DNA of 64,000 nt, taken from contig NBIV01000101.1 in assembly GCA_003194525.1 (NCBI GenBank), forward strand, positions 1 to 64,000, in the 5' to 3' direction. Positions 1,663 through 64,000 of this stretch are shown piece by piece; position 1 is the stretch's first letter; the number at the start of each line of letters is the position of its first letter. Position numbers and translations under genes: made by a program. Under the pieces are notes generated by a model. That model searched no databases, was not told where the DNA came from, and saw nothing but the letters and a program-made list of their open reading frames with translations. This stretch comes from Gracilariopsis chorda (taxonomy: Eukaryota > Rhodophyta > Florideophyceae > Gracilariales > Gracilariaceae).

Positions 1663-1736
1663 AGGCAACGCCCCCTCCGAGGTCGGAACGCCTCACCCGA
1701 ACGAACGGTTTAGATTCTTCGCCCAAGCCGGACGAA

Positions 1737-4700
1737 GTGTACGTTGTGGATGAGTATGAGCCGACAGCCCCAGTGGCCCTTTTAAAGAATACCCACTATA
1801 AGATAAACTTTTCTGTGGATTCTCCCGCTCGGTCTTGTACCCCCTCACCGGTGTACTTGACACCGGCGCTGGCCCTAACCTCATCCACGAACGGAACCTC
1901 CCCTAATTGGGAGGAGCATCTCCAATCCCGTTCGTTCACCAACATCACGGATGCCTCTCGGAATCGTATGAACATCCGTGGTGTTGTTCCCCTACTCGTA
2001 CACATCGGAGCTCTAACCGTTCGGATCCCCTTTCTCGTTGCCACCAACCTCGCGGCCAGTTGTATTCTCGGTACTTCTTTTATCGATAAGTACGTCATGG
2101 CAATACTACCCCCGAAACGGACAATAATCTTACGTCACTCCACCCCGTGGCGATTCAATCTTCTGCCGGTCGGTCCTCTCGCTCGCCGGGAGAGCACGTA
2201 CCGGCTACCACTCGGAAGACCCCTTCTAATAAGATACGGGTCGCCCGACCGGTCGTCATACCCCCCATGTCGGAATCATCCGTCCGGGTAACCACCAAGG
2301 CGGCCGGCCTTGCATTCTTGCAAGGATATCACCGTTCGGCTAGCCGGCAGGAGTTAACCCTCCTGGCCAATGGCATCATGGAACTCCGTCCGGACGTACC
2401 ATTTTACGTCCAAGTGGCGAACTTTTCCGACCGTCCGGTACGCTTACACAAGCGTACAATCATCGGATTAGCTCTACCCTCCCCCATCGCGTTAATCACA
2501 CCGGAATTTCCGTCACGGAGTGACGAAACTAAGGAGGGGGGACCCTTGCCTAATTCATTTTCCGATACGGACAACGCAGCTAACCCGCGCGTTCAGGCGC
2601 CACCAAAGGATCCGGACGATTGGATATCCAATATCCAATTGGCGCCCGAACACGAATCCGAACGGACGAAGATTGTCGAGCTACTGCGCCCATTCCGGGA
2701 TATGTGGGACGGCCATCTCGGACGTGTGGCAGCGGCAAAACACCGCATTGAGCTGGAACCCGGCACGCGGCCAATTTACCAAATGCCGTACCGTGCGGGC
2801 CCCGCTCGTAGAGAACTTGAACGAGCGGAAGTCGAAAAGCAGCTCAGACAGGGCGTTATTGAGCCCTCTACATCTGAGTGGGCCAGCCCGGTCGTGTTTT
2901 GCTCAGAAGAAGGACGGTAGCCTGCGCTTCTGCGTAGACTACCGCCGCCTAAACAAAGCAACCGTACGGGATACCTATCACTACCGAGGATGGATGAATG
3001 CATCGACTCCCTTGGGGAGGCGAAGATATTCACCACCCTCGATGCCAATAGCGGATATTGGCAAGTGGAAGTGGATGAGACCGATCGGGACAAGACTACC
3101 TTCACCTCACACATGGGGCTGTTCAGGTATTTACGAATGCCGTTCGGATTGAAGAATGCTCCGGCAACGTTTCCAACGTGCACTGGATTATCATCTTATC
3201 GCCGTGTGAAGTCGCAGTACGCATTGGTCTACCTTGATGACGTCATCATCTACTCCAGTTCGGTAACCGAGCACTACGAGCCAGCGTACGGACAATTCTG
3301 ACCCTACTCCGATCGGCAGGCGTGACGCTACGTCTGGACAAGTGCCACTTTTTCAGTAGCACGGTCGACTACCTTGGCCACATTCATCCGTCCGGGCAAG
3401 CTTCAAGTGTCAACAAAGACACAAGAAGCAATCCGAGCGGCTAAAGCCACCGACCAACCAGACAGAGCTCCGATCGTTCTTAGGCCTGTGTAACGTCTTC
3501 CGCCGGTTCGTCAAGAATTTCGCTCGAGTTGCGGCACCGCTTAACCGCAAGCTCGAGAAAGGCCAACCGGTTCTGCTTCGATACTCTGTCCGATGAGGAA
3601 TACCAGGCGTACGATGAGTTACGGCAACGGCTCATTCGACCGCCTATCTTGGCAATTCCGCGCCAAGATATGCCGTACGTTCTGGACACTGATGCCTGTG
3701 ATAAACAGGTAGGTTGCGTTCTCCTACAGAAGCAACCGGACGGCGACCTACTCCCGATCGGCTACTGGAGCCGTTCTTTGTCGAAACCCGAACGGGACTA
3801 CACACGACCGAACGGGAATGTCTCGCCGTTGTATGGCGATATTGCACCTCCGACCGTACCTGGAAGGCCAGAGGTTCACACTCCGCACGGACCACCACGC
3901 ATTACGGTGGATACTCAAATCTGGCCGATGCCACCGGTCGGCTAGCACGATGGCGCCTGCGCCTCATGGAGTACGAATTTGACATCGTACACCGACCAGG
4001 AGTTAAGCATCAGGCAGCCGATGCTCTTTCCCGAATCCGAACGGACCGCGAAGACACCAAACCCCCTTGACGAAGAGGTGCCGTGCCTCCTGATATCCGA
4101 CCGAGCGGAAGAAGACAACGATTTGGTCGCCGATGTCACCATCGACGGACAGGAGCACCGAGGCGTCACGCTGGACACCCCGTGCGGACATGACCCGGTC
4201 GGAATTCCAGAGGTCCTCGCAATAGTCGAGGAAGAGACGGACGTCCGGCCAATCACGGTCGAAGAATTCGTCCGAGGCCCAGGCCGAAGACGGATATTGC
4301 AAGACCGTGCGGAAGGACATTGGTAACGGTGTCACGCTATTCGACGTGGAACTGGTACGGAATTATCGTCCGACGCTCCCCCTTGGATGGTGCTCTCCAG
4401 CGAGTGGTGCCCCGTGCACTGGTACCCGCGCGTGCTGTATCTCGCGCACTATCCGCGCTTGGAAGGGCACCCGGGCGGGACCCGCATGTACAATACCCTG
4501 AGGAGGGATTTCTACTGGCCGCAAATGGCGAACGATGTGTTCCAGACCGCACGGGACTGTCGATCGTGCGCTGCCGTGCGGGGAACTCAGTACCGGTCGC
4601 AGAAGCGACTCAAGCTGTTTCCCGCTGCCGGACCATTGGAATTTGTCGCAATGGACATTGTCGGTCCATTCCCGAAGTCCGTCAACGGCTACGAGTATAT

Positions 4701-6013
4701 CCTCGTCATTACCGACCGGTTCTCTAAATTATGCCGCGCTATCCCGCTACGGTCAACCACAGCTCCCGTGGTTGCCAGGGCTTTCCTGGAAAACTGGGCG
4801 TATCCGTACGGCATTCCTAACCACCTACTTACCGATAACGGCCCGCAGTTCGTCTCCAAGTTTTTCGAAGACGTCTGCGCCGCACTGGGGACAAAGCACG
4901 TGCGGACCACGGCATATCATCCCCAGACGAACGGTCAAGCCGAACGGTTTAACAAGACACTGGTGCAACGACTGCGACATTATGTCGCAGACCACCAGTC
5001 TAACTGGCACGCTTACGTGCAACCAATTACGTACGGATATAATCTACAGGTCCACCGCAGCACCTGGACCACGCATTTCGATTTGGCGTTAAACCGATGT
5101 CCCGCCGAACGTTATACTGGATGAGCCCAGTTCCGCAACGGAACCGCGAACGCCGGTGCAACCGACGCCCGCAACAGATGAAGCGTACACTCTACGTCTT
5201 TTAAAGACGACGCTTCAGTCCGCTCGGAATCGCCTCACCGCTGCGCAACGGCGTTACAAAGAGGACTTCGATAAATCCGTACGGCTAACTCCAACCTTCC
5301 GACTGGGACAGGAAGTCTTTCTAGACCGCCCGGCTACTACTTCGACCGATGCGGCCCTGGAGGAGCACGAACGTACGTCACGGAAGTTTTCATTGAGAAC
5401 GACCGGTCCGTACGTCATCATATCCGCGACGGACACCACCGTGACCATCGACGTTGACGGCGTTCATGACACCGTCAGCATCGATCGCGTCACGTTGGCC
5501 CCCGCTCGGCAGTCAAAATCGCACGGCAGGAGCCCCCCGGACGGAAATGCCCAAGACACGCTGACCGGAAGCACTCCCGCTCAATTGCGAGATACCCCGA
5601 GCGGTACAAATAGTTCCAAGCGGACGTCCCGGCCACTAACACCTAACACACCCCCAGCCACCGAATTGGCAGAACCGGACGGCAGAGTGGATCTCCCTAA
5701 GGCGGGAACCTCACCGAACGGAGACACAACACCTGCCCGGGACCACGAGTCTTCCCCGAACGGAAACCGACCGCCAACGACGTTGGCCGTTGTCGACCGC
5801 ATTGTCGACCACGGCCGATCGGCCAACCACCCGTACGGAAGATTATACCGCGTCCGCTGGCACGGATACTCCGCTCGGCATGACACATGGGAACCGCCCG
5901 AACACATACCGCAATATTTCGTTGCACGGTATTGGAACCGACGGGCCGCACGGAGGCGCCCCACTTTAGGAGGGGGGGAATCAAACCCGAAACCCCTGAA
6001 CCGAACGAAATGA
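1737..6013 (+). pseudogene. pol region of Ty3 element 1 (PR-RT-RH-IN-chromodomain)
   Basis: Part of a fossil LTR element, broken. Visible domains are an aspartic protease with DTGAG near 1858; reverse transcriptase from about 2640 to 3300, with a YLDD catalytic box near 3230; RNase H at about 3640-4030; and integrase at about 4430-5080, with the H...H...C...C zinc module, DNGPQF and an HPQTNGQAERFN-type segment. A chromodomain at about 5780-5940 (RVRWHGY...DTWEP) ends the polyprotein. Chromodomains at this position define chromoviruses and are known to steer integration to marked chromatin. The order PR-RT-RH-IN is diagnostic of Ty3/gypsy rather than copia. Confidence 0.85.
5967..5978 (+). 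other. internal polypurine tract just after pol
   Basis: TAGGAGGGGGG lies just inside the end of the chromodomain ORF and is repeated exactly at 9209-9219 before the 3' LTR. In LTR elements such tracts prime plus-strand DNA synthesis. A second, internal copy is known in some retroviruses and long plant gypsy elements. No TG-type LTR start follows directly, so I read it as an internal tract or a duplicated one. Confidence 0.5.
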
Positions 6014-26422: not shown

Positions 26423-26766
26423 GTTGACCTAGCAAAGACAAGGCCGACAGACGAGCGCAGGGGAACGCAAAATGCAGTTTCGCCACCTGGTTATAGGTGC
26501 AGTAAGCTTACTTCGCTTGTGGTGCGGCAACGAGCTCCGCTCTCCATAATATGCTCCTCCGGTGATGTGGTCCGGGGAAAATGCTGTGGGTCTTGCAATC
26601 ATCCAGAACCGCGCATTTTTATTACAGTGTGAGCTCCATTGGGGCATTAAAGAAAAGAAATGGCCAAAAGCCAAAAACTTTTGTTGACCAATAATGTACT
26701 GCCACATGCCGTTCACGGTAGATCTACCGTGAATTCACGCTTGTTAAGAACGGCCCTGGGGATGGG

Positions 26767-27011
26767 AGAGGGATATAAACTACACAACGTAGATAGTGTA
26801 GGCGAGTCAGCGCGCATTTGCACCAATAAAAAGAGAGAGTCAGCGGGCACGTGCCACGGCGGGCCGCAAATGTGCTCACGCCAGTTGAGATCGTACTGAA
26901 GCCAATCATATGCCCCTATTTTGGATTTCAACCAGTAGAACCGCAGAGTCAAGACATTCCCTCCATCCCTGCTCTCTCCAGCCGCTAAGTCAGCACGACC
27001 TAAACGCGATG
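26767..27011 (+). repeat. left TIR of MULE
   Basis: About 245 bases, inverted match to ~46075-46301 with scattered mismatches and one ~20-base indel. It contains a CACGTG E-box and a CCAATAAAAAG stretch that could be a promoter element. MULE TIRs usually carry the promoters for the internal genes. Confidence 0.8.
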
Positions 27012-28283: not shown

Positions 28284-29087
28284 TGTAGTGCAACGCCCTC
28301 ATGGAGGGATTCTTGGTACTTGAACGCTTTCCCGATATTATCGGTTGTGTAATGTGTATATGAACTACGCCCCACTATGGTGGATATGGACACGTGGGAC
28401 AAGGTTTTGGGTCAATTGGCGGTTGGCCACAGTAGTGGATGTTGCCACGAAATGTGGAGTATTTTAGTTAATATTATTTATTATTTTCACACCCATTTCT
28501 GGGAAGCTAGTACTTAGTGCGACGGCGCACTGCCGTCACACCAGTAAACCTTCCCCAACAAGGGACCCCAACCTGGGGAATTGGCTCTAGTTGTTGCCGC
28601 TTGCGCGCATACTCTACTCCTCCTTGGAGGGAAACGCCGTAAACCACGGGACATTTAACCCCCTTGCACATCTAAAGGGACCCATCACTGGGAGTATAAT
28701 TGTTCCAATTGCATTGGTGTTTCGCGCTGTATAGGGATATTGTTACCGGCATCGCCGTTCGTCCCCGTCGCTCTCGCGACTCACTTCGCCCTTCTTTTTC
28801 TCCTTTTTAGGGTAGCACCTCCCGCTATCCGCGGCCCTCGTGTGCGCATCCGCTCACACACCCCCACTTACGTGGAAACATACCTCTACTGAGGATCACA
28901 CCCCGCTCACGCGGATACCAATTCTTCGCCTTCACCTCCCTGCGCGAGTCGCGACAGGTGTCCCTGGTCTTACAAACCGGCTTCGCCGTGACACCTCTGG
29001 GAGGGCTCTACCCAACTGGGTTCACCTCGTGAGAGGAAGATCCCGAACTTCTTTCGGTGTTTTTCCCCTTTGGGGCATTGCACCACA
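28284..29087 (+). repeat. solo LTR A (Ty3 element 2 family)
   Basis: 804 bases, TGTAGTGCAA...TTGCACCACA, flanked by a perfect 5-bp duplication TATCT (28279-28283 and 29088-29092). Nearly identical to the LTRs at 32999 and 42063 but in the opposite orientation. A TATA-like AT-rich stretch lies at about 28469-28490. A lone LTR with clean duplications means the internal part was lost by LTR-LTR recombination. Confidence 0.93.
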
Positions 29088-29737
29088 TATCTGTGTGCTT
29101 ACCGAGCGGTTGAATTGAGCGAACCCAATGCGGTGACCCTGTGCAAGAAGTAGTACACGGCGCAAAGACGTCACAATTCAGAGCTGCGTACCTCAGGTCA
29201 AACTGAACAGTTATGAATGACCAAAGTCTCGGGTTAACTTTACTTAGTGCTTGCGACGTCGAGGTCGCGCTCACCTAGGTAGGTACACTAGCAAATAAAT
29301 TATAATAATTAACTCCAAAATTGCAAACCTCTTCAGGTCCACATACGTGGCCAGGCCAGTATCAAGCACCCTTAGGGGTCAACCCAAGTAAAACATAACA
29401 CTACAGCATGGTGCTGTCGCACACGAGCACACGCGTTCACTCATCGTGCAATCGATTCTACATTCCTACCTTCCTAGGTGAAACTTCCACAGTAAACCAT
29501 CCCATTTGGATCACCTCGTATGGGTCCAAATCATAAACGGTAGAGCCGTCACGGTAACCACGTCACATTCCTATGAGTAGCATCGTCGCGATTTCCACGC
29601 CTTTCGCGTTGCCCCACATTAAGCGACAAAGAGACTCGCACAGCTGTGGTTGCTATGCGGTTTCCCTTCTCACCATGTTCAGTACGGATCACGGCTGTAT
29701 CCCGAAGCGAACCTATGCCTCTGGATAGATTCGGGCG
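29088..29737. other. MULE internal spacer
   Basis: 650 bases of MULE sequence resuming after the solo LTR. No coding signal or named motif seen. Confidence 0.4.
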
Positions 29738-32998: not shown

Positions 32999-33802
32999 TG
33001 TGGTGCAATGCCCCAAAGGGGAAAAACACCGAAAGAAGTTCGGGATCTTCGTCTCACGAGGTGAACCCAGTTGGGTAGAGCCCTCCCAGAGGTGTCACGG
33101 CGAAGCCGGTTTGTAAGACCAGGGACACCTGTCGCGACTCGCGCAGGGAGGTGAAGGCGAAGAATCGGTATCCGCGTGAGCGTGGTGTGATCCTCAGTAG
33201 AGGTATGTTTCCACGTAAGTGGGGGTGTGTGAGCAGATGCGCACACGAGGGCCGCGGATAGCGGGAGGTGCTACCCTAAAAAGGAGAAAAAGAAGGGCGA
33301 AGTGAGTCGCGAGAGCGACGGGGACGAACGGCGATGCCGGTAACAATATCCCTATACAGCGCGAAACACCAATGCAATTGGAACAATTATACTCCCAGTG
33401 ATGGGTCCCTTTAGATGTGCAAGGGGGTTAGATGTCCCGTGGTTTACGGCGTTTCCCTCCAAGGAGGAGTAGAGTACGCGCGCAAGCGGTAACAACTAGA
33501 GCCAATTCCCCAGGTTGGGGTCCCTTGTTGGGGAAGGTTTACTGGTGTGACGGCAGTGCGCCGTCGCACTAAGTACTAGCTTCCCAGAAATGGGTGTGAA
33601 AATAATAAATAATATTAACTAAAATACTCCACATTTCGTGGCAACATCCACTACTGTGGCCAACCGCCAATTGACCCAAAACCGTGTCCCACGTGTCCAT
33701 ATCCACCATAGTGGGGCGTAGTTCATATACACACTACACAACCGATAATATCGGGAAAGCGTTCAAGTACCAAGAATCCCTCCCTGAGGGCGTTGCACTA
33801 CA
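32999..33802 (-). repeat. 3' LTR of Ty3 element 2
   Basis: 804 bases, read on plus as TGTGGTGCAA...TTGCACTACA. About 98% identical to the copy at 42063-42866. Termini form a 10-bp near-perfect inverted repeat. Confidence 0.95.
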
Positions 33803-33816
33803 TATCCCCCCCCTAA
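33803..33816 (-). other. polypurine tract of Ty3 element 2
   Basis: On the minus strand TTAGGGGGGGGATA directly abuts the 3' LTR start TGTAGTGCAA. This is the usual place for the plus-strand primer. Confidence 0.75.
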
Positions 33817-34059
33817 GACGGGAAAACGACCGCGGACGCGGAGGGTTCCCAGACGTAAATGGGTGATAAAAGCGCGTACGCTGTCTCCGGTTCTTCTTTC
33901 CTGGCATAGCCGGCTATTGTAGTATAGTGTTGTGGGGAGCTAGCTGCTCCCTTGAATAAACTTTCCCGTTTTGAACGGTGATTCTCGTTTGAGTTCCCCG
34001 TCTTCGACGGACCCAGCCTTGTTATCATTTCCTATCGCCCTCCGTTCGCGCGGCAACGT

Positions 34060-34290
34060 TAACCAACTTGGGCATTTACCAGCGTGGCTGGAGCTGCAGT
34101 TCCCGTTTGACGGTGGTATCGCACGACCTGCGACCGTGGGAGGTGTTCGATTGGCTCCCACGTATCCCCACTGGGGTCCTACCCGTACCAGCGGACGCGG
34201 TATTGTAGAATACCATCCTGGTCCCAGGTGTGTCCGACAAGTCGGTCTACTACAAACTCTCGTTCGTAGACCTGCCGGCCGTGCCGGGTG
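34060..34290 (-). other. chromodomain-like region at the pol 3' end of Ty3 element 2
   Basis: Minus-strand peptide motifs YEREFVVDRLVGH...LQYRVRWYG and DTWEPIEHLP are those of a chromodomain, which in chromoviruses lies after integrase and directs integration. It sits about 1.4 kb past the integrase core, separated by a long disordered Pro/Ser/Thr-rich tail. Confidence 0.7.
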
Positions 34291-35025
34291 GTGGTTGTAC
34301 TTCCTTGCGGGGGCTGCCCGCTGTGCGGTATAATGTCCCTTAGCAGGGTGTGCGGCGATAACTCCGGCGTTGCCGTGCGCTGTGATAGCGGCCGCTGCTC
34401 ATGCTGGAAGGTATCCCTCAAGAGGGTGTGTGGTGCCACGGTTTTCACCGGCAAGTCATTCCCCATTGGGGCAGAATCATTTCCGCTTTCGCGGTATTGC
34501 GGGCGAACCGCCAGTCGGCGGAGGACTTGGGCTCCGCCTTCGCGGTTGAGCTCACAAACCGCGAGTTGGCGGGAAGATGACCGCTCCTGCGGAATCGGCG
34601 TTTCCACAATCCCCTGGGGGGTCCCGTGCGACACGGTGATTGGGTTGCAAACCGCCTCCCTGCCAGGCGCACGAGTGCTCTGCACCATACGTTCCGGCGA
34701 TGCCGTGGTGTCCCCGGCTACTGACGGGTTGCCTGGGGCTAACTCCGGTACACCAGTATTTTGGTCAAAATTCCCCTTGGGGGGTGCCGGGCAGGTGCCG
34801 ATGATACCCTTTTCAGGGGAATTGCCGCTAAGCGCGGTGCACCATCTCCATGAGGAGGAGCAGCGTCCGGTACGACCGGTTTCGAGCGTGCGATGGCGCG
34901 CGTTTTTCCCGAGTTCCTCGGTTCTTCGCCGCAGCGATGCGGGGGTTGGCGCAAATTATTCCCCGTAGCGGGGTCTTCGATTCCGTCAACGACGGGAGGC
35001 GTTTCCGGTGCTTGCGAGCCAGGGC

Positions 35026-38000
35026 TTAAAGCTTCAACTGCGGCTTGGCTGCCTTTTTCCCCAAGAGGGGTATGGGTATTCCCTGTGAGGCCGGCGTATC
35101 TGGGCGCCCCTTCTCCGCAAGGCGCGGGTCTGATCGACCTGATTGAACCGCTTCCGTGGGGACTTCCGCCAACGGCGGCTTCAAGGCATCGCCCTGCTCA
35201 GGGGATTGGGGGCAATCGTCACCATACTCCCTTATCGGGGATCCTTCCCTGACAGGGGTGTGCGGTAGTTGCGCTTCAACTTCCCGTGTAACACGGTATG
35301 TTTTCCGCGTTTGTGGCGATTCCTCCGGGGATGGATTGGGCGATTGCCTTTCCGCTGCTGCGGTATTGGAGTGAGGCTTCTCGTTTTCCCGTGACAAACG
35401 GTGTATTTGCCGCTTTAGCGGGGCCTGCGCGTCTGGTTCCTGTTGCACAGCACTGCCCGGGAACGGGGGATTAGTGTCGCGTGACATACTCCGTGCTCCA
35501 CGGTCAGTGTTCCTTATGTTAAGGTGTGTTTCCCGTTGCGACGGCGATATTGTTCCTCGAAGACGAGTGTTCTCCTCCCCCTCCTTAGACGGAGCGGCGG
35601 GATAAGGGATACCATTCCCCGCCTGGCGGGTATAGATGCGCGCCAGTGGGGCAGACGTGGTAGGGGCGGGCGCTGAGGGGCCTGAATTACCCGGCTGAGC
35701 CGGTGAGTCCGACAGAGTCGGTAGGTCTGAGAGTCCCCGGCTGGGGTTTGGTAGTACCGTAGGTCTACTACTCCCGGATGGTTCCGGTATTGCAGAGTCC
35801 GTTGAAACGGGGTTGCCTGGATCCAGGACTACCTCTGACGAGGGAGGAGGGGCAAGGACAACACGATCACGGGAAATCTGTTCGTGCGTGTCGCCCATCT
35901 CTACCACGACAGTGTCGGTGTTAACAGAGATGACCTTGAAGGGTCCATCCGCCACAGGCGAGAGTTTGTGACGCTTCTCCCGTTCTGGGTTGTAGTACTC
36001 CTTCCTGATGAAGACGTAGTTATTTGCCCGAATCGGGGGGGTCTTTCCTCGCAAGCGAGCGTCAAAATTCCGCTTGTAAGCGGCTTGGGCCCGTGCCATA
36101 GACTTCCGCGCAGCAAGGACCAGCTTGGAAAGCCATTGCTTCCATTGCTGCTGGTAGATACCCACAGATGAGAAATTGTCCAAGGTAGCTTGGGGTTCCA
36201 GCGCCACAGGCGGGGGTGTTCTAGATAGAACCAACTCGAATGGCGAAACTCCGGTAGTCCGGTGTACCTGCGTATTGTACGCGTAGGTTACCGCATCAGC
36301 GTAGAGATCCCAATTCGTTGGGTGGTCAGCGACGTAGGAACGTAACGCCGCGAGTAACGTCCGGTTAAACCGTTCAACTTGCCCATTACACTGGGGGTGG
36401 TAGGTAGTCGTGAACAAGTTCTTGACATCCAGGATGCGACAAACATCCTGGAAGAACTTGCTCACGAACTGCCTCCCGTTGTCGGAGAGCCCCTCCACAG
36501 GGGGACCGTAGACAAAAATCCAGTGCGTCACCAGAGCCTGGGCCACCGTGAGAGCGGTTATCCTCCGAAGAGGGACAGTCCGTACCAGCTTAGAAAAGCG
36601 GTCGGTGATGACAATTAGAAACTTGTTTCCACGTTTTGTGGTGAGTAGTGGTCCGAGAAGATCAATTGCGATAAACTCGAGTGGCGCCCTTGCGGGGAAT
36701 AGTTTCATCTTCTTCGCATTTTTGCGAAGTGTGACGCGATTCTTCGCGCATTCGCTACAAAACCGCACAGTTGCGTAGCAATCCACCGCCATTGCGGGCC
36801 AATAGAAATCCCTTCGCAGGGTTAGGTAGAGTTTCCTCCCACCTGGGTGACCTCCAATGGGGGCGTAGTGTGATAGATGTAACACCCGCGATTGCAGGGA
36901 ATGTGGTACCACAATCTGTGGGCGGGCTTCGAACTTTCTTACGAGGTAGCCTTTGTCGTTTACCCCGAAAGGGAGATCTTCACCACCGTTGATACGGGCA
37001 CGAATTCTCGTACAGAATGGGTTGCCAAATTGTTCTCGGATCATTTCTTCCGGTGATACCGGTACAAAGTTTCCCGGTAACGGGTTCTCAGATTTATCTC
37101 GCGATGCGAGTAGTTCGTCAAAATCAGCATCCTCGTCCCAGGTTTCTGGCCTAGCCTCGACGGCATGTTCCGGATCATCCGGGTCTATAGCCATGAAGCA
37201 TGGGACTTCATCATCCTCCGTTGGGAGTTCTTCCCCACTTGTGGGTAACGGCGACAAAGCGTCGGCCTGGGTGTTCTGCGCACCCTTTTTATAAATGACT
37301 TGAAAGTCATATTCCGCGAGGCGGAGTCTCCAGCGCATGAGGCGTCCCGACGGGTCGGAGATATTCATCAACCACCTCAATGAGGATTGATCCGTGTACA
37401 CGGTGAAGTGAATTCCCATAAGGTAGGGGCGCAGAGTGGTCATCGCCCATACGACGGCGAGGCACTCTTTCTCCGATACGGAGTAGTTCCGCTCATGAAC
37501 ATTGAGCGAGCGCGACCAATAACCAATTGGATGTCGTTCCCCCTCGGGGTTGGTTTGAAAAAGAGCACACCCGAGTTGGTAGTCGCTCGAGTCCGTATCT
37601 ACGGAGTATGGCAACCCAAGTTTTGGGAGATGTAGGATTGGTGCTGATGTGACAGCCTCCTTTAAGGAGTTAAAAGCTTCCGATTGCTCGGGCGTAAATG
37701 TTCCCAGTTTTGGGGGGTTCCCCTTTCGCAACAACGCGTTCAGGGGCGCCGCGGTATCCGAAGAGTTCGGGATAAACCGTCGATAGACGTTGACCAGCCT
37801 CAAAAAGGAGCGCAGTTCCGTTTGAGTACGGGGTTCTTTCGCCTCAACGAGGGATTTGACTCGAGCTTTCTCGATCGCTAACCGTCCAGGACGGATAATG
37901 TGACCCAGATACTTCACATTATCTGTGAAAAACTCGCATTTACTCAACTTGAGGGTAATTCCCGCATCGCGGAGTACGGTCAGCACGTCTCGGACGTGAG

Positions 38001-39765
38001 TGAGATGGTCGTCCAACGAGTTGGAGAAGATGATAATATCATCAAGGTAGACCAGACAGCTCCGCCACTTAAAGCGGTCGAGTAGAATATCTACTGCATG
38101 CTGAAAGGTGGCGGGGGCGTTGGTTAACCCAAATGGCATCCGCTTGAAGCGGTACGTTCCTGCATGGCAGGTGAATGCGGTTTTGTCACGATCCTCCTGT
38201 CTGACAGGTACTTGCCAATATCCCCAATTGGCATCAAGGGCCGTGAACACGGTGGCGTCTCCAAGGGAGTCAATGCACTCGTCCATACGAGGGATGGGGT
38301 ACGTGTCCCTAACAGTCACGGCATTGAGCCGGCGGTAGTCGACACAGAACCTCCAGGTTCCGTCGGCCTTTAAAGCCAGTACAACTGGGTATGCCCAGGG
38401 TGATTGAGCGGGCTCAATCACACCTGCGCGGAGCATCTTGTCCACTTGGGACTGCTCCTCTTCCCGAGCTTTCGGACCTGCCCTGTAAGGGGGTTGTGCA
38501 ACCGGTCGCGCACCGGGGATTAAATCGATCCGGTGTTCCGTTGCATTAATCTCGCCAAGCGAGCCATCCCACATTGTGGTGAATTCCCGTAACATAGTAC
38601 GGAGTTTGTCGCGGTGTGACTGTTGCACGTGGCTGACGTCCAGCGCTTCAAGTGCTTTTTCCGGATCAATCCGGTCGTTGCTCGATAGAGCATTGTCCTG
38701 TGGAACAGGTGCGGTTCGCAAATCCGAGTTACTCGGTATGTTCGACGCTGAAGTAGCGGTTTCCTCCCCCTCCTTAGACTTGACGTCTTCGGACGGCGGG
38801 GCGAACTCCTCAGAAGAGGTGGTAACTCCGAGTACATCGGCGGCTGTCATCTTTGTTGGCAGCATTCCCATAGGATGGGGGGTTACACTCCCAATTACTT
38901 GGTGTTTGACCAGATACTGGGGGTGTTTGCCAAGGTTGGCAACCAATATCCGGAAAGGGACATCCGGGGAAATGGAGACAATTCCATTAGCCAGCGCCAG
39001 CTGGGATTTCTCGTACAACGAGGCGAGGGGTTGTATAACCCGAAGACCGTGTTGACGGGAATTTACCTGCACCCAGACTTGGGACTCAGCCGGTATAGAA
39101 ACCGAGGCAGCGACGCGGAGCTTGGTGGACTCGCGAGACGCGGGCAGTGGTTCCTGTGCAGCAGGGAGCGGAACTTGTTTCCGAGAGGACCGCTTTAGCG
39201 CGCGGCGAACAATCGGAACCGACGATCCGTCGTCAAGTTCTACACGCCTGAGGCAGGGCCTGATTGCTTCGACAAATCTGTCGCAGTAATCACATCCCAG
39301 TATCACTGGTGCTGCCAATGAACGGCAAATGATGAAGTCCAACTTCACCACAGAGGTACCAAGTCTCACGACGAGGTCCACTGTCCCCACCGTTTGTAAC
39401 GGATTGTTGTTCGCATCCGAAATGTCGGGGACCGCGTCAGAGCGGATACGCGACCACACAAGCGGGGGTAACAATGATTCCACAACAAAGTTGGGGCCTG
39501 CACCTGTATCCAGGACGGTGAGAAACTTCACCATAAACTGAAGATCAAGTCTAAGGTCGGCATAGACCTTATAATTGCGTTTGGCCAAGACCAAGACTCT
39601 ACCGGGAGTCCGGGGATTTTTACTCCGTATCCACGGGCGACGCAACACACCGAGGTGCGCAGAGTCCGCGTCAGCGATGTCTTTCCTCGAGAGGACTTTC
39701 ACCGGGGTGCGAGGCGAGGACGCCTCGGGCGCCAACAGCCTCGTTCTTGAGGACGCCTCTCCCAA
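35026..39765 (-). CDS. pol of Ty3 element 2 (PR-RT-RH-IN, long open frame)
   Basis: Part of a nearly whole LTR retroelement. Seen in order in a 1579-codon open stretch are an aspartic protease (VLDTGAGPNF); RT (FCVDYRRLNAVTVRDTYPIPRMDE, then YLDDIIIFS); RNase H (VDTDSSDYQLGCALFQ, YTDQSSL); and integrase with the HHCC zinc module (LSHYAPIGGHPGG...CSECAK) and DDE core (IAIDLLGP, SDNGRQF, HPQCNGQVERFN). A GPY/F-like C-terminal stretch and a ~300-residue disordered tail follow. Protein order and motifs are standard for Metaviridae. Gag and pol lie in different frames; frameshift expression is common in this family. The open stretch is not preceded by an ATG of its own, which fits expression as a gag-pol fusion. 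Confidence 0.88.
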   Translation of the reverse strand: MGEASSRTRLLAPEASSPRTPVKVLSRKDIADADSAHLGVLRRPWIRSKNPRTPGRVLVLAKRNYKVYADLRLDLQFMVKFLTVLDTGAGPNFVVESLLPPLVWSRIRSDAVPDISDANNNPLQTVGTVDLVVRLGTSVVKLDFIICRSLAAPVILGCDYCDRFVEAIRPCLRRVELDDGSSVPIVRRALKRSSRKQVPLPAAQEPLPASRESTKLRVAASVSIPAESQVWVQVNSRQHGLRVIQPLASLYEKSQLALANGIVSISPDVPFRILVANLGKHPQYLVKHQVIGSVTPHPMGMLPTKMTAADVLGVTTSSEEFAPPSEDVKSKEGEETATSASNIPSNSDLRTAPVPQDNALSSNDRIDPEKALEALDVSHVQQSHRDKLRTMLREFTTMWDGSLGEINATEHRIDLIPGARPVAQPPYRAGPKAREEEQSQVDKMLRAGVIEPAQSPWAYPVVLALKADGTWRFCVDYRRLNAVTVRDTYPIPRMDECIDSLGDATVFTALDANWGYWQVPVRQEDRDKTAFTCHAGTYRFKRMPFGLTNAPATFQHAVDILLDRFKWRSCLVYLDDIIIFSNSLDDHLTHVRDVLTVLRDAGITLKLSKCEFFTDNVKYLGHIIRPGRLAIEKARVKSLVEAKEPRTQTELRSFLRLVNVYRRFIPNSSDTAAPLNALLRKGNPPKLGTFTPEQSEAFNSLKEAVTSAPILHLPKLGLPYSVDTDSSDYQLGCALFQTNPEGERHPIGYWSRSLNVHERNYSVSEKECLAVVWAMTTLRPYLMGIHFTVYTDQSSLRWLMNISDPSGRLMRWRLRLAEYDFQVIYKKGAQNTQADALSPLPTSGEELPTEDDEVPCFMAIDPDDPEHAVEARPETWDEDADFDELLASRDKSENPLPGNFVPVSPEEMIREQFGNPFCTRIRARINGGEDLPFGVNDKGYLVRKFEARPQIVVPHSLQSRVLHLSHYAPIGGHPGGRKLYLTLRRDFYWPAMAVDCYATVRFCSECAKNRVTLRKNAKKMKLFPARAPLEFIAIDLLGPLLTTKRGNKFLIVITDRFSKLVRTVPLRRITALTVAQALVTHWIFVYGPPVEGLSDNGRQFVSKFFQDVCRILDVKNLFTTTYHPQCNGQVERFNRTLLAALRSYVADHPTNWDLYADAVTYAYNTQVHRTTGVSPFELVLSRTPPPVALEPQATLDNFSSVGIYQQQWKQWLSKLVLAARKSMARAQAAYKRNFDARLRGKTPPIRANNYVFIRKEYYNPEREKRHKLSPVADGPFKVISVNTDTVVVEMGDTHEQISRDRVVLAPPPSSEVVLDPGNPVSTDSAIPEPSGSSRPTVLPNPSRGLSDLPTLSDSPAQPGNSGPSAPAPTTSAPLARIYTRQAGNGIPYPAAPSKEGEENTRLRGTISPSQRETHLNIRNTDRGARSMSRDTNPPFPGSAVQQEPDAQAPLKRQIHRLSRENEKPHSNTAAAERQSPNPSPEESPQTRKTYRVTREVEAQLPHTPVREGSPIREYGDDCPQSPEQGDALKPPLAEVPTEAVQSGRSDPRLAEKGRPDTPASQGIPIPLLGKKAAKPQLKL

Positions 39766-39782
39766 AGGGGAGACTTCCTCAG

Positions 39783-41957
39783 TTAGTTTCCCGCCTTCGG
39801 CGGTGGGTTGGTTTCCTCGACAACGAGTGCTTCATCCCGTTGACGGGGGTTTCTATCCGCATAAGCGGGGGTTGCAACGGATGGTTGCGTGATCTCCCGA
39901 ATCGGGGTGTATGAAGCTTGCAGCGCACGCGGGGTCTGTGGTAGGGCGTGGGAGAAGTCCGTTTTAGCACGGAGGTAGGAAGCCGTCGGGACGGACCATT
40001 TCTCCTCTGGAGTGAGTGCCTCATAATTTGCCACTACCTTGGCCATATCCTTCAGTGAACAAATACACTGAGGTGAGGTATGGCCATGGGTATAGCACAG
40101 GTGACATATGAGAGCCAACACGGCGACACGCGGATTATTATTCCGAGTATCGGAGAAGCGAACCACAGGGCGGGTTTCAGTCCATCCAGGCCGTTGATAA
40201 CGGGATTGACCGTTTGAAAACGGGAGTCGTTGGGGTTGAACCCGACTGTTACCACCGTATAGAACGGGGTCGTCCGTTCCCGTATCACGGGTCATCTCCG
40301 TCGTTGACGGTAAATCACTGGTGGGTATCGACACACCATCCCCCTGCACTAAATGCACGGTATCAAATCCCTGTCCAGGGTTCCCATCCGCGGTGAGCGG
40401 GAGAGAGGAAGCTTCGCTTTCCAGCAACAACGCCTTGGCGGATTTACACCGATTGTTCGGAGTTCTTGCACGAAGTGCATCCCCTTCCGCTCGAGCGTGT
40501 TGGACCAGCTCGAGGTAGGTGATCCTCCGCTTGTCCTCCCGATAACGGGTAACTAAACTCCGGATTGCCTTGTCAAGACCATCGATGAACATGGTACTGC
40601 GCTCCCCAGCGGGGTATACGTTACCACATCTGTGGAAAGCCTTGTTAAGGCGCACCGAGTAATCGGTCTCGGTCTCTCCAGCACGCTGGCGTGTATCTCG
40701 CAAAGCGAGGATAGCCTGCTGAATAGCGGTGTCGGTGGCGTAGGAGCACAGAAGATACTGCACAGCCTCCGGCCAGCAAGTAACTCCTCCCTCGGAGGCG
40801 CGAGAAGATCCTCTGACAAAGGTGTATTGGTCCTCCGCCACTCCCCGTAAGAAATACGGTAAAGCCAAATAGGCTTGTCTTTCATTCATACCGAGGATAT
40901 CGGCCTCCGCTACAAAGCGGGATAGGAAATCCAGTACTAGGACTGGGTCCTCTCCAGTAAAATACTGGTTGCGGAGCGAGAGCTGCATTCGCTTAATGCA
41001 TTCTCGCACCTTTCCAGTACCACGGGGCGTACGTCCAAGTGACGAATCTTCGAGCCGGTAGTACCGGTATGATAAAAGCTTCCGGTAATCCAGGTTTGTC
41101 GGTTTCAATTCCCGGAGACCGGGGTGTCTTCTCCCCTTCTGGCGGGTTCGGACCACACCTTCAGTGGCCGATGTCCGCTTCGAGCGGGAGGAGTAGCCTC
41201 GCTTCTCGTCCTCCGAGTCGGAGTCCGAGGAGCTCGAGCTAACCGAATGGTTTCGGGATGAGTCCGACGATTTCGAAGAATCGGAGTCCGAATATTTTCG
41301 GTGGTGTTTCCGTCGATGACGGCGTTTCTTCTTCCCAGCAAGCTGGTCTTTGTGCGATGCCTCGTTTACCGGATCACCCGGGGATGGTGTGTCCATGAGG
41401 ACGAACTGCTCCAGCGTCTCCAGGCGGGCACCAATCCGATCAAAACGGGCTTCAACTCCTTAGATGAAGGTGGCGGGTTGTCCCAAACTCTCCAACACGG
41501 AGTTGACGTCAGACCATAAAATACGGAGTTCCTCGGCGACCTCCTTTACGGGGGTTGCCGAGACCACCTCTTGGAGGGATTTTAGTTCCCCTACAAGGGC
41601 GTCATGGGCGGTCCACAGAGCACGGACCTGGGATTCCAGGGAAGTTCCCTGGGGGGTGTTATCGCCCGTTCCACGGGGGCTTAAAGCCGAGACAGCGGGA
41701 GCAGGCCGGGGTGCCTGGGGCACTGCAGCAACAGCCGGAGTCGATGCTGCATTCCCCTGCGGGGGTGATAACGAGGGCAAAAGGAGGTTCCGGGGTTCCC
41801 GGTCGGGGGTATCATTCCGCGATGAAGCGGCGCCAGCATGGCTGGAACTTGTCCGTATAGGGATACGGGGTACGAACCGATCTTCGGAAGTGTCTGCGTT
41901 GTCGCGGGAGCGACTACGCGTAACCACTGGCTCCGCGTCGGAGGGATTTCTCGACAT
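39783..41957 (-). CDS. gag region of Ty3 element 2
   Basis: Part of a nearly whole LTR retroelement. The upstream portion encodes a disordered, Ser/Arg/Pro-rich segment with a short predicted helix. The main open part (39783-41396) starts with an SR/Asp-rich stretch (KKRRHRRKHHRK, SSSSSDSDSED), then a capsid-like helical region (ETETDYSVRLNKAFHRCGNVYP). A CCHC zinc knuckle (CHLCYTHGHTSPQC) lies near the end, typical of nucleocapsid. The SR-like head is shared in style with the gag of element 1. Confidence 0.8.
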
Positions 41958-42041
41958 GATAAAATACCGTTACGACGGGAAACGATCACGGGACTACAGG
42001 TGAATGAAAACAAACCTCGTAAGAGGGAAAACAAAAACCGA

Positions 42042-42059
42042 TTCTAAGTCAGGAGACCA
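42042..42059 (-). other. primer binding site of Ty3 element 2
   Basis: On the minus strand TGGTCTCCTGACTTAGAA begins two bases after the 5' LTR. TGG is the complement of a tRNA CCA end, the usual start of a primer site. Which tRNA is used cannot be decided here. Confidence 0.6.
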
Positions 42060-42062
42060 CTT

Positions 42063-42866
42063 TGTGGTGCAATGCCCCAAAGGGGAAAAACACCGAAAGA
42101 CGTTCGGGATCTTCCTCTCACGAGGTGAACCCAGTTGGGTAGAGCCCTCCCAGAGGTGTCACGGCGAAGCCAGTTTGTAAGACCAGGGACACCTGTCGCG
42201 ACTCGCGCAGGGAGGTGAAGGCGAAGAATCGGTATCCGCGTGAGCGGGGTGTGATCCTCAGTAGAGGTATGTTTCCACGTAAGTGGGGGTGTGTGAGCGG
42301 ATGCGCACACGAGGGCCGCGGATAGCGGGAGGTGCTACCCTAAAAAGGAGAAAAAGAAGGGCGAAGTGAGTCGCGAGAGCGACGGGGACGAACGGCGATG
42401 CCGGTAACAATATCCGTGTAAAGGGCGAAACACCAATGCAATTGGAACAATTATACTCCCAGTGATGGGTCCCTTTAGATGTGCAAGGGGGTTAGATGTC
42501 CCGTGGTTTACGGCGTTTCCCTCCAAGGAGGAGTAGAGTACGCGCGCAAGCGGGAACAACTAGAGCCAATTCCCCAGGTTGGGGTCCCTTGTTAGGGAAG
42601 GTTTACTGATGTGACGGCAGTGCGCCGTCGCACTAAGTACTAGCTTCCCAGAAATAGGTGTGAAAATAATAAATAATATTAACTGAAATACTCCACATTT
42701 CGTGGCAACATCCACTACTGTGGCCAACCGCCAATTGACCCAAAACCGTGTCCCACGTGTCCATATCCACCATAGTGGGGCGTAGTTCATATACACACTA
42801 CACAACCGATAATATCGGGAAAGCGTTCAAGTACCAAGAATCCCTCCCTGAGGGCGTTGCACTACA
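42063..42866 (-). repeat. 5' LTR of Ty3 element 2
   Basis: 804 bases with the same termini as the copy at 32999-33802. Followed at 42867 by GTTCA, the target duplication with one mismatch to TTTCA before 32999. Confidence 0.95.
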
Positions 42867-44545: not shown

Positions 44546-44754
44546 TAGCATTGACCACAGCCTTTTGATCCATTTCCTCCTTTCATAATCTCTTTGAGCT
44601 TTTTATGTTCTTCATAAAGGCCCAGGTATCTTGCTCCCATCGCCTTCTCCTTTACCATAATCCTTTATTCAACTTCTATATATTGTAGGGTATCATAGAG
44701 AAATTTCCTTCGCATACTCTACATTTCCGTCCATGAACGCGTGAACAGTCTTCC

Positions 44755-46073: not shown

Positions 46074-46074
46074 T

Positions 46075-46301
46075 TATGTCATTTACGTTGTGCTGACTTG
46101 GCGGCCTGAGAGAGCAGGGATAGAGAGAATGAATAATCTGCGGATCTACTGGTTGAAATACAAAATATGAACAATCTCAACTGTCTTGGGCACATGTGCG
46201 GCCCGCCGGGGCACGTGCCCGCTGACTCTCTCTTTTTATTGGTGCAAATCCGCGCTGACTAGCCTACACTACCTACGTCGTGTAATTTAGCCCTTTCCCA
46301 A
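46075..46301 (-). repeat. right TIR of MULE
   Basis: Inverted match to the left TIR at 26767-27011. Outside it CTGGGAATGGG (46302-46312) repeats the left flank with one mismatch. Confidence 0.8.
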
Positions 46302-46384
46302 CTGGGAATGGGCAACATGCAATCGTATTCAAACCCTTTCTGAGTGGTGCTGTTGCACCACTAGTTGAATGCAGTCCGAATAAA

Positions 46385-47945: not shown

Positions 47946-47949
47946 CCCC

Positions 47950-50487: not shown

Positions 50488-50639
50488 TTGCAAAAATGTG
50501 TCCCGGTAAGATGTATCTTTTTTTTGACAGTCCCCGGTTGGTGCTTCTCATGTTTGTATGGGACGGGGGACAATGCTTATTGCCCCGCGAAGGAAAGTGA
50601 AACGGTCGCGGTATAAAGAATTGGTAAATATATCCGCTC

Positions 50640-51065: not shown

Positions 51066-53820
51066 CTCCGTTTGTCAGGCTATGGGTAGAGCCTAGCGTG
51101 GTTGCACGCACTGCAGGTTAGTTCAATATTACTTGGTAGTGCCGATGGCATGGTGGAGATTGGTGGCAGTAGGGCGTAATTTGCCCGGATGCGCAGGGTT
51201 GAGTTTAAGGTGTCATTGATGGGCTTGGAGTTGTACGCTGTTGTTTTGGCATGCCCTAACGTGGTTCGATAGACTGTGAGGTTAAAGTTGGGGACCCTGC
51301 GAGTGTTCTTTTTTGGATATAGGTAGAGCTTTCTACTCAGGCGGGGTTGGTGGTGGACGTCGTGTCGTGGGAGGCTAGTGGGTGGGGCGAGTGGTGGGTA
51401 TGAAAGGTGGAGGTCGTTCAAAGTGCGGTCAGGGAAACGTGCGTGCTTTTTGTGCTTAGATGTTGGGCAGCAGTTGGCCGTTGAATTGATAGTGATTTCC
51501 GTTCCAAATTGCGGTGCCTGTGGTGCAATGCCCCAAAGGGGAAAAACACCGAAAGACGTCCGGGATCTTCCTCTCACGAGGTGAACCCAGTTGGGTAGAG
51601 CCCTCCCAGAGGTGTCACGGCGAAGCCGGTTTGTAAGACCAGGGACACCTGTCGCGACTCGCGCAGGGAGGTGAAGGCGAAGAATCGGTATCAGCGTGAG
51701 CGGGGTGTGATCCTCAGTAGAGGTATGTTTCCACGTAAGTGGGGGTGTGTGAGCGGATGCGCACACGAGAGCCGCGGATAGCGGGAGGTGCTACCCTAAA
51801 AAGGGGAAAGAGGAAGGACGAAGTGGGTCGCGAGAGCGACGAGCAGATACGGCAATGCCGGTGGACAGGACTCCCTATACAGGGCGAAACACCAATATGA
51901 TTGGAACAATTAGTACTCCCAATGATGGGTCTCCTTTAGATGTCCAAGGGGGGTGAACTTCCGTACACTACGGTGCTTCCCTCCAAGGAGGAGTTGAGAA
52001 CACGCGGAGGCGGTAAAGCTCAGAGCCAATTCCCCAGGTTGGGGTCCCTTGTTGGGGAAGGTTTACTGGTGCGACGGCAGTGCGCCGTCGCACTAAGTAC
52101 TAGCTTCCCAGAAATGGGTGTGAAAATAATAAATAAAATTAACTACAATACTCCACATTCCGTGGCAACATCCACTACTGTGGCCAACCGCCAATGGACC
52201 CAAAACCGTGTCCCACGTTTCCATACCCACCATTGTGGGGCGTAGTTCATATACACACTACACAACCGATAATATCGGGAAAGCGTTCAAGTACCCAGAA
52301 CCCCTCCCTGAGGGCGTTGCACTTCAGTGTCAAGCAGGATTTGCGGTGATTGGGTGGTGTCTTAGATGGTGCCTTTGGCTCAAATGAAGGGTACTCTGCC
52401 GTATCTACATGCCAATTCATCTAATGAGAGCAGATGGTGTCGGAGGTGAGGGTTGGTTACGGAGTAGGTTAGAAGCTTCTTATTTCTGGTCTTTTGCAGG
52501 TGGATAGTTCCATGATTGGTGCATCGTGTCGGCTGATGCGTGGCAGATTGGGTTAGAATTTTTGTGGCTGTAGTGTTCATGGTGGTCATGGGTCGCGTGA
52601 GATTAGTGGGATGTGCGCCGCTGTCTAGGATGAATTTATCATTAGGTTCGCTGCCAAATGCTGAGGTGAAGTCAATTTGGTTTTGTGACGTTCCTGCTGG
52701 CTAAAGTGGTGGGTATTTTATTGGCTGGGCATTGGGGTGGTAAGCATACGGGTGTTGTGGGGGTTACGCCGGGCTGGCGTGTGCAAGGTGGGCTTGTGGT
52801 TTGCCAATGTGGTTCTTAGAGTGATTCTGGTCCCTAAATTGTGCATCAGTGTGGTTGCATTTTCTGCTGGGATCGTTGCGATAAGAACATAATTGATAGT
52901 AGGGGATCTTTCTTCCTGTGGGTGGCGCGCGGATGAGATGTTGACGTGAGGTGCAGTGTGTTGCCATTAGTCCGTAGTCCCGAGTGATTCTTGGTGGTCA
53001 TATGAGTAAGTGGGTCCGCTCTGGGCTGGGTGGTAAAGTGTTGCGAGCGATTTAAATACTCAGGTAAAGCTCTTGCGTGTGGTAGGTTTGTTGGCCAGTA
53101 TTGGTGCTATAATGGGGACGAGAGCCGGACACGATTTGAGTCGATATAATTTGAAGTCCACAGTGGTTTCCTAGTACTCTATTTCAGGATAATTCGCGGC
53201 AATCATGCGTTGCCTGACTTTAGTGTGTTCTGACAGGTAGGTCTCGATCGGATATTCTCGGTTGTATGTGATGCTTCTTGCTTTTGCTTTCAAAAAACTG
53301 TTGATCATCATTCGTGAACTGATGAATGTGTTAAATGATTCTCTCTACCAGATCGGGCGGTGTTGGTTCATCTTCAGGGACTAAGAGCAGGCCGAGGATT
53401 TCTATAGGAACTCTGCTTAGCACCGCAGCTAACAAGCGGTTTTGTTCGTTTTAGAACTGTTTCTGGGTATTTGCGTTGGCGGGGAAAAATTGATTTCCCT
53501 GGATGTGTGGGAGCACCTCGATGATTTCCGCGTACTTTTTGAGAGCTAAGTACTATAAGGCATATTTGAAGGTGTTGAGGTCTGGTAGGTTGTAAGTTTG
53601 GTCTGATTCCATGACTATGATGGTATTTGTGGGTTGTTGGGTGGTGTGGAGGGATATGTAGCTGTCGTTGCGACTGAGTATGGCTTTGGTGTAAAGCTGT
53701 TGTAGGTAAGGGTCTTTGCAGAGGCTCAGCCGTGTTGACGAGCTGCTCTTGTGTATGAGGGAGCCGTTGTTAACTTATGTGATGGGTCGGAGGAGTTAAA
53801 ACATTTTTCTCGCAGGTAGC
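51066..53820 (-). pseudogene. copia gag, protease and pre-integrase remnants (minus strand)
   Basis: Part of the fossil minus-strand copia, carrying solo LTR D. A pre-integrase zinc motif (LTCSACNHARLY) lies near 51090. A protease-linked stretch (52380-52589; HLLSLDELACRYG) matches the plus-strand copia at 56157-56402 (YLLSVKDLTTRYG). Gag-like fragments continue to about 53820. Confidence 0.6.
51519..52326 (-). repeat. solo LTR D (Ty3 element 2 family)
   Basis: 808 bases, TGTGGTGCAA...TTGCACTTCA, flanked by GTGCC/GTGTC (51514-51518 and 52327-52331), a 5-bp duplication with one mismatch. More diverged than the other family copies, so it is an older insertion. It lies within the minus-strand copia. 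Confidence 0.9.
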
Positions 53821-63841: not shown

Positions 63842-64000
63842 TGAAGTGCAACGCCCTCAGGGAGGGATTCTTGGTACTTGAACGCTTTCCCGATATTATC
63901 GGTTGTGTAGTGTGTATATGAACTACGCCCCACTATGGTGGATATGGACACGTGGGACACGGTTTTGGGTCAATTGGCGGTTGGCCACAGTAGTGGATGT
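63842..64000 (+). repeat. LTR F (Ty3 element 2 family), cut by the window edge
   Basis: Begins TGAAGTGCAACGCCCTCAGG and follows the family LTR to the end of the window. The first 159 bases are visible. It could be a solo LTR or the 5' LTR of a further element. Same orientation as solo LTR A. Confidence 0.9.

What the first reader, a model, noticed from the sequence alone, without database searches (positions are those of the whole stretch)
33803..42062. Ty3 element 2 is saturated with short perfect hairpins, through coding and LTR DNA
Seen directly: varied 4-5-bp perfect inverted repeats with 3-5-nt loops recur every ~10-30 bp. In one coding stretch six occur within 98 bases: 38661-38674, 38680-38691, 38697-38709, 38710-38720, 38724-38736, 38746-38758. 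Others include 34807-34818, 34825-34837, 34867-34879, 34909-34921, 34961-34973 and 34983-34995. The LTR shows the same (CCACTATGGTGG, CCGATATTATCGG, CCACAGTAGTGG). Stem sequences differ from one hairpin to the next, so this is not one spread motif; what recurs is the structure. Neighbouring host genes and the copia lack it. Inference: selection or a mutational process acts on nucleic-acid folding, for example RNA packaging, protection, silencing evasion, or a structure-reading protein. I know of no described Ty3 group with this property.
Basis: partly seen in the sequence, partly recalled or inferred. Interest (0 to 1): 0.88.

Follow-up and report, generated by a model that had tools for sequence, protein, structure and literature searches.

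The report
Hairpin-studded retrotransposon of a red alga
A jumping gene in a red alga is packed from end to end with hundreds of tiny, near-uniform hairpins that selection appears to maintain, perhaps as handholds for the protein that packages its RNA.

Summary
The Ty3 element at 32999-42866 (sense strand minus) holds 36.6 perfect short hairpins per kb in its internal part against 11.7 in dinucleotide shuffles (302 vs 96.5, z 20.5), and about 40 per kb in both LTRs. Synonymous codon shuffles do not explain it (pol z 15, gag z 9). Density is even across the element and stops at its edges. All 26 other loci examined, some partial, have it. At silent and non-coding sites stems vary less than loops and spacers. 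Three copies with an 18%-divergent 2.2 kb pol segment keep 68-70 hairpins there, about 40 expected: maintenance with positional turnover, although compensation of single pairs is rare. Related Ty3 elements range from milder or longer-stem versions to none. Best mechanism, unproven: an array of Gag-binding units in the packaged RNA; Gag has a predicted capsid domain and a zinc knuckle. Ten searches of an open-licence library showed no description.

The parts
32999..42866 (-). Whole Ty3-type LTR element (element 2), saturated with short hairpins from end to end
   Evidence: LTR pair; 14-23 hairpins per 500 nt inside, 3-8 per 500 nt just outside
42063..42866 (-). 5' LTR (sense), 32 hairpins (39.8 per kb)
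32999..33803 (-). 3' LTR (sense), 32 hairpins (39.8 per kb)
41460..41957 (-). N-terminal part of gag (165 codons), in frame with the main gag ORF but cut off by a stop codon found only in this copy
39783..41396 (-). Main gag ORF (537 aa), basic and Ser-rich N-terminus; residues 121-310 have a predicted capsid fold; 59 hairpins vs 22.7 in synonymous shuffles
40065..40106 (-). Gag zinc knuckle CX2CX4HX4C (aa 431-444 of the main gag ORF)
   Evidence: its Cys and His columns are invariant or nearly so in the 11 aligned Gags
35026..39765 (-). pol ORF (RT, RNase H, integrase; no chromodomain hit); 173 hairpins vs 63.6 in synonymous shuffles
35116..37366 (-). pol segment that is about 18% divergent in subfamily B copies yet keeps hairpin density
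38661..38758 (.). Cluster of six perfect hairpins named in the finding
34807..34995 (.). Second cluster named in the finding; six of six perfect
28284..29102 (+). LTR of the same family in opposite orientation; 33 hairpins vs 9.0
51519..52330 (-). LTR of the same family; no adjoining internal match was reported; local hairpin peak
63842..64000 (+). Partial LTR of the family at the window edge
300..5600 (+). Divergent Ty3 element 1 (approximate bounds) with its own excess of longer hairpins (stem 6-9)

Best explanation
The element's nucleic acid is written as a semi-regular array of structural units: perfect hairpins mostly 11-14 nt long (best single class 5 bp + 3 nt), often with a CC/GG base and A-rich flanks on the sense strand, about 20 nt apart centre to centre where dense. 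SHOWN by sequence: the excess, its limits, its geometry, its presence in all 26 other loci examined, reduced stem variation at silent and non-coding sites, and retention of density through divergence. Many Gag molecules would each take hold of one hairpin, so that the RNA is selected, coated and compacted during particle assembly. Because any hairpin in about the right place will do, single sites turn over while density is kept.
Against: G.U pairs are essentially absent (7 excess G.T vs 1266 excess Watson-Crick); plain selection on RNA stability would tolerate them, so a strict reader, both strands, or DNA is needed. Free-energy folding keeps only 41% of hairpins intact in 300-nt windows. Most changed stem pairs are not compensated: 598 of 1378 pairs vary and 19 show two Watson-Crick types; of fixed A/B differences 5 of 47 changed pairs (called on A) and 1 of 33 (called on B) are compensated. 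At second codon positions stems are no more conserved than spacers (0.0252 vs 0.0253). The size class is not sharp: stems of 6 bp or more, though few (19), are 2.9x expected. L030, 5.5% divergent, shows no retention for stems of 5 bp or more (140 of 400). Five fragments of other Ty3 elements do not approach this saturation, so Ty3 packaging as such does not need it. A-flank bias is weak in the LTR. The Gag model is of middling quality (mean pLDDT 58.7, 11 sequences; no Foldseek match reaches E 0.001). No binding or probing data exist. The spacing match depends on the counting threshold and on an assumed yeast-like particle.
Confidence: 0.4

Rival explanations
1. Silencing evasion or RNA protection without a specific reader: dense local folding on both strands hides target sites and hinders sense-antisense annealing, while short stems stay below what double-strand nucleases accept.
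For: Only 20% of 21-nt windows are free of hairpin bases vs 69% in shuffles. Strict Watson-Crick pairing folds both strands alike and explains the missing G.U pairs. Stems longer than 5 bp are few: 21 of 367. Genome-scale structure in RNA viruses goes with reduced host sensing (PMC3950689, abstract).
Against: Does not predict the CC..GG polarity, the triloop-5 bp preference or the A flanks on the sense strand. Other Ty3 elements in the genome do without it.
Confidence: 0.22
2. The structural level is single-stranded DNA: the hairpins form in cDNA during reverse transcription and are bound by nucleocapsid or integrase, or keep the strand compact.
For: No G.T tolerance, as expected for DNA. Loops of 3-5 nt with a fall at 6 and no excess at 7-8 for 4-5 bp stems, which matches the loop preference of DNA hairpins better than that of RNA (recalled).
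Against: A flanks and G-poor loops on the sense strand suit unpaired RNA. I know of no Ty3 step that needs genome-long ssDNA hairpins (recalled).
Confidence: 0.15
3. A host RNA-binding protein reads the units, for example for nuclear export, stability or translation of unspliced element RNA.
For: The motif-like CC/GG base and A flanks fit any hairpin reader.
Against: The host genes near by show no excess, and a host reader would not be expected to need one site every 20-30 nt over the whole RNA, coding and LTR alike (inference).
Confidence: 0.1
4. Mutational by-product: fold-back template switching by the element's reverse transcriptase, or repair, turns imperfect palindromes into perfect ones.
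For: Arms are perfectly complementary with no wobble; confined to an element copied by its own polymerase. Of 16 printed hairpins present only in subfamily B, 8 differ from A on one arm only, which this model also allows.
Against: The other 8 of 16 differ on both arms. Long stems are few (19 of 6 bp or more). Strong CC..GG polarity. Same density in conserved RT and integrase domains as in non-coding DNA. Silent stem sites vary less than others.
Confidence: 0.08
5. Chance, base composition or codon usage.
For: None beyond the 11-12 per kb that shuffles give.
Against: z 20.5 against dinucleotide shuffles, z 15 and 9 against synonymous shuffles, and no excess of mirror repeats.
Confidence: 0.01

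Closest known systems
Multiple dispersed packaging signals of single-stranded RNA viruses (MS2 and others; PMC6281560, abstract and one section read)
   Same: Many stem-loops through the genome, sharing recognition features and differing in the rest.
   Different: There the shared feature of MS2 is in loop and bulge; here it is a CC/GG base, a small size and A flanks. Here there is one per about 32 nt over the whole element. Protein binding is unknown.
[quoted passage not shown]
   Same: Folding energy below shuffles along the genome.
   Different: GORS, as I recall it, is defined by overall folding energy; here the excess lies in one stereotyped minimal hairpin class with no wobble pairs.
Yeast Ty3 genomic RNA (PMC11381356, outline and one section) and Ty3 particle (PMC6525542, passages)
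   Same: Ty3-type element with LTRs, gag and pol; about 20 bases of RNA per Gag in the yeast particle.
   Different: Yeast Ty3 RNA is described as a mosaic of stable and dynamic regions, A-rich; no hairpin array is reported in the section read.
Element 1 and other Ty3 elements of the same genome
   Same: Element 1, L036 and L037 also fold better than shuffles and have excess perfect hairpins; L037 and L039 have a modest short-hairpin excess (z 2.5 each).
   Different: The clear excess in element 1, L036 and L037 is in longer, sparser stems, in loops up to 12-14; L040 shows no clear hairpin excess.

Membership tests
Ty3/Gypsy LTR retrotransposon | pol order RT - RNase H - integrase | tested here: met
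   Pfam hits in that order in 35026-39765
Ty3/Gypsy LTR retrotransposon | Two near-identical LTRs with TG..CA ends and a polypurine tract before the 3' LTR | tested here: met
Ty3/Gypsy LTR retrotransposon | Gag with capsid domain and zinc knuckle | tested here: met
Chromovirus (Ty3 with C-terminal chromodomain) | Chromodomain at the end of pol | tested here: not met
   No chromodomain hit in the pol ORF at E 0.001, though many of the 120 listed relatives have PF00385
Dispersed RNA packaging signals | Many stem-loops with a shared recognition motif through the genome | tested here: met
Dispersed RNA packaging signals | Stem-loops bind the coat protein and promote assembly | not testable with these tools
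   needs binding and assembly assays
Genome-scale ordered RNA structure | Folding energy below that of shuffled sequence along the genome | tested here: met
   mean z -2.15 sense over 32 windows; host 0.16 over 20
Genome-scale ordered RNA structure | Link to persistence or reduced host sensing | not testable with these tools
   no data on host response
Templated (fold-back) palindrome formation | Stem lengths that tail off smoothly into long stems | tested here: not met
   excess ratio over loops 3-5 rises from 2.6x (4 bp) to 5.6x (5 bp) and falls to 2.9x (6 bp or more, 19 cases) (sums)
Templated (fold-back) palindrome formation | New hairpins arise by change of one arm to match the other | tested here: inconclusive
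   8 of 16 printed B-only hairpins differ from A on one arm, 8 on both; direction of change unknown

The most novel reading that the evidence does not exclude
A retrotransposon clade whose whole genome, coding and non-coding, is co-written with a repeating structural alphabet: about one small hairpin per capsid subunit, read by base, size and flank rather than by loop sequence, with different geometries in different families that co-evolve with their Gag. Protein code and packaging code would overlap along the full length.
Probability: 0.37. Interest if true: 0.93.

Novelty: new variant of a known kind. Interest (0 to 1): 0.85.

Why it matters
How retroelement Gag chooses its own RNA, and whether contacts along the whole RNA matter beyond a 5' signal, is a long-standing question. 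Here is a natural case where an apparent contact code is dense enough to read from sequence alone, with hundreds of near-replicates per element, many copies, and related elements that differ in hairpin style. That makes the dispersed-signal hypothesis directly testable in vitro with short RNAs. It is also a striking example of two overlapping codes in one sequence.

Tried and rejected
Chance, composition and codon usage: rejected by dinucleotide and synonymous shuffles and mirror-repeat controls. One spread motif or tiny inserted repeats: rejected, inner stem and loop sequences differ. A property of every repeat of the host: not supported, since 22000-28283 and 44000-64000 do not differ from shuffles and five fragments of other Ty3 elements do not approach the saturation (L037 and L039 have z 2.5 for stem >=4, loop 3-5). 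Codon phase: no strong preference (start phases 22/19/18 in gag, 71/52/50 in pol). Sense-strand wobble as proof of RNA: looked for, not found. A first stem-versus-spacer comparison against the window copy was biased because hairpins were called in the copy compared; it was replaced by comparisons among the other loci. Relatives outside the genome: none found in viral contigs or genome contigs; only protein relatives. One search failed on a script error and was rerun.

For these I lowered the best explanation from 0.42 to 0.40 and the novel case from 0.38 to 0.37, and raised the mutational rival from 0.06 to 0.08. The Gag structure job finished only then and its fold matches were added; yeast Ty3 capsid is not among the rows shown, which is no evidence of absence.

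Row choices: one search used 26 loci, some partial; overlapping duplicates (L005-L008, L015-L018) and L001, the window copy itself, were left out. Fixed differences left out L030 and L019 and sites without 85% agreement in group A. One search used five fragments, of 40 places listed, oriented by the strand of those hits; whether they are five separate families was not tested. One search pools overlapping stem-loop classes, so one hairpin can count more than once.
Full report

All 12 listed hairpins are perfect (letters). With stem >=4 and loop 3-5, the internal part has 302 against 96.5 in 60 dinucleotide shuffles, z 20.5. Each of the two LTRs has 32 against about 8. Host genes (115 vs 100.6), 22000-28283 (79 vs 70.4) and 44000-64000 (251 vs 233) do not differ from shuffles; 1-10000, with another Ty3 element, is mildly above (174 vs 124.7). 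Density is 14-22 per 500 nt from one end of the element to the other and drops at the edges. Shuffling synonymous codons gives 63.6 (pol) and 22.7 (gag) where 173 and 59 are seen; the highest of 300 shuffles were 89 and 35. The excess is similar in the N-terminal part, RT, RNase H, integrase and C-terminal part of pol. Same-geometry repeats that pair by three other rules are not in excess; at gap 8-10 complementary repeats (z 2.7) and one control pairing (z 3.1) are slightly high.

WHAT THE UNITS LOOK LIKE. The excess depends on geometry: loop 3 with 5 bp is 8.6 times expectation, loop 4 with 5 bp 4.6, loop 4 with 4 bp 3.3, loop 3 with 4 bp 2.3, loop 5 with 4 or 5 bp 2.1 and 2.4. Stems of 3 bp are at 0.9-1.3, and loops of 7 or 8 with 4-5 bp at 0.7-1.2. 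Over loops 3-5 the ratio is 2.6 for 4 bp, 5.6 for 5 bp and 2.9 for 6 bp or more, the last being 19 hairpins; in number the excess peaks at a total of 12-13 nt (sums). The base is often 5'-CC..GG-3' (168 of 305 non-overlapping hairpins, against 9 GG..CC), in LTR, leader, gag, pol and 3' region alike (14:0, 12:1, 29:1, 74:3, 25:4). The leader region of that count contains the N-terminal 165 codons of gag. Inner pairs can be any Watson-Crick pair, but not G.T: the excess over shuffles is 1266 Watson-Crick, 7 G.T (1.04 times), 36 A.C (1.17 times) and 120 other (1.15 times). On the sense strand the unit is preceded and followed by A more often than composition predicts, least so in the LTR, and loops are poor in G. 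Gaps of 0-4 nt are avoided and 5-9 nt favoured. Centre spacing has its modal bin at 20-21, median 25 and mean 32 nt.

IT IS MAINTAINED. All 26 other loci examined, some partial, have 34-40 hairpins per kb against 10-13 in shuffles. With hairpins called in the window copy and differences counted only among those 26 loci, pairwise diversity at fourfold sites is 0.0466 in stems, 0.0772 in loops and 0.0872 in spacers; in LTRs 0.0365, 0.0575 and 0.0552. Stems are also lowest within CpG, other G/C and A/T sites of the fourfold and non-coding classes. At first codon positions the contrast is small (0.0277 vs 0.0337 in spacers) and at second positions absent (0.0252 vs 0.0253). Copies L023, L024 and L028 form a subfamily whose 2.2 kb pol segment (window 35116-37366) is 18% divergent and which is otherwise much closer. 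In that segment they hold 68-70 hairpins of stem >=4 and 25-26 of stem >=5, where the window copy has 78 and 26. Placing the same substitutions at random within the same codon position and base class leaves about 40 and about 10.5 (0 of 400 as high, for each of the three). L030, 5.5% divergent there, gives a weaker result: 3 of 400 for stem >=4 but 140 of 400 for stem >=5. The subfamily's hairpins are partly at new places: 207 centres shared, 26 only in A, 15 only in B.

RESULTS THAT CUT THE OTHER WAY. Pair-by-pair compensation is not the rule. Of 1378 pairs, 598 vary among the loci and 19 show two Watson-Crick types. Of pairs changed between the subfamilies, 5 of 47 (hairpins called on A) and 1 of 33 (called on B) are compensated. 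Many differences among copies are probably decay after insertion (inference). Of 16 printed B-only hairpins, 8 differ from A on both arms and 8 on one, so a templated origin is not excluded by that test. The evidence is for density, not for fixed sites. The missing wobble pairs fit RNA stability poorly. Free-energy folding of 300-nt windows keeps 41% of the hairpins whole on the sense strand and 31% on the antisense; mean z is -2.15 and -1.78 (host 0.16).

RELATIVES. The nearest other family at hand, a gag stretch in L030 at 65% nucleotide identity, has the same geometry at lower strength: 37 vs 17.6 over 1568 nt for stem >=4, loop 3-5 (0 of 300 shuffles), 8 vs 4.4 for stem >=5 (21 of 300), nothing for longer loops; against synonymous shuffles of the aligned gag part, 25 vs 15.0 (z 2.8). 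Of 39 element-2 hairpins in the aligned stretch, 8 have a hairpin at the same centre. Element 1 in this window (about 300-5600, plus strand; 33-55% identical over pol blocks of 70 or more residues) has longer and sparser ones: stem >=6 with loop 3-8, 36 vs 8.0, and with loop 9-14, 21 vs 7.4. Five further fragments of 2.5 kb (five of the 40 places) vary. L036 and L037 have some excess of stems >=7 and fold better than shuffles (sense z -2.0 and -1.4); L038 has some long stems with loops 6-12; L037 and L039 have a modest short-hairpin excess (z 2.5 each); L040 has no clear excess; folding z of L038-L040 is -0.7 to -0.8. Structure is thus a property of part of this clade, in different forms, and this family is the extreme case seen here.

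HOW IT MOST LIKELY WORKS. A narrow size class, a base with polarity that stacking energy does not explain, strict pairing, one-sided composition and a minimum spacing all point to a reader (inference). In the yeast Ty3 particle 540 capsid proteins hold two genomes, about 20 bases per Gag (PMC6525542, passages); the modal hairpin spacing here is 20. With a 9.06 kb RNA and the same particle the figure would be about 34 (my arithmetic), against a mean spacing of 32. This is suggestive only: the particle is unknown here and part of the hairpins counted are chance ones. Rivals are silencing evasion by folding of both strands, a DNA-level reader, and a host reader; a mutational origin is unlikely but not excluded.

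NOVELTY. Ten searches of the open-licence library (listings only; two searches were on Ty3 capsids and red algal genomes) showed no paper on such an array in a retrotransposon. The nearest ideas are dispersed packaging signals (PMC6281560, abstract and one section) and genome-scale ordered RNA structure (PMC3950689, abstract). Probed yeast Ty3 RNA is described as a mosaic (PMC11381356, outline and one section). I file it as a new variant of a known kind: a Ty3 element by tested features, working perhaps like dispersed packaging signals, which is not shown.

Noticed in passing
window 300-5600: A divergent Ty3 element, with a chromodomain ORF at 5156-6013, has its own excess of longer perfect hairpins (stem 6-9 bp), a different style from element 2.
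   Followed up: partly
window 41460-41957: The N-terminal part of gag is cut off by an in-frame stop found only in this copy: none of the 20 other loci (of 26) that cover the site has a stop there.
   Followed up: yes
window 35116-37366 and L023, L024, L028: A subfamily differs from the rest almost only in this pol segment (about 18%), which suggests recombination between lineages; a 401-base probe from it has 40 near-identical matches, the limit of the search, which suggests recent activity.
   Followed up: partly
window 40065-40106 and the following 40 codons: A conserved stretch follows the Gag zinc knuckle in the aligned homologues, predicted as helices at 448-459, 463-466 and 472-484; possibly a further nucleic-acid-binding part.
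   Followed up: partly
window 22400-23065 and 56893-57807: Two ORFs with DDE_Tnp_4 transposase matches; the first is below Pfam's cutoff.
   Followed up: no
window 61635-62174: A fragment with weak similarity (24%) to the pol integrase region, perhaps another element.
   Followed up: no
window 54001-54500: A local rise in short hairpins (15 per 500 nt) without many of the CC..GG class; cause unknown.
   Followed up: no
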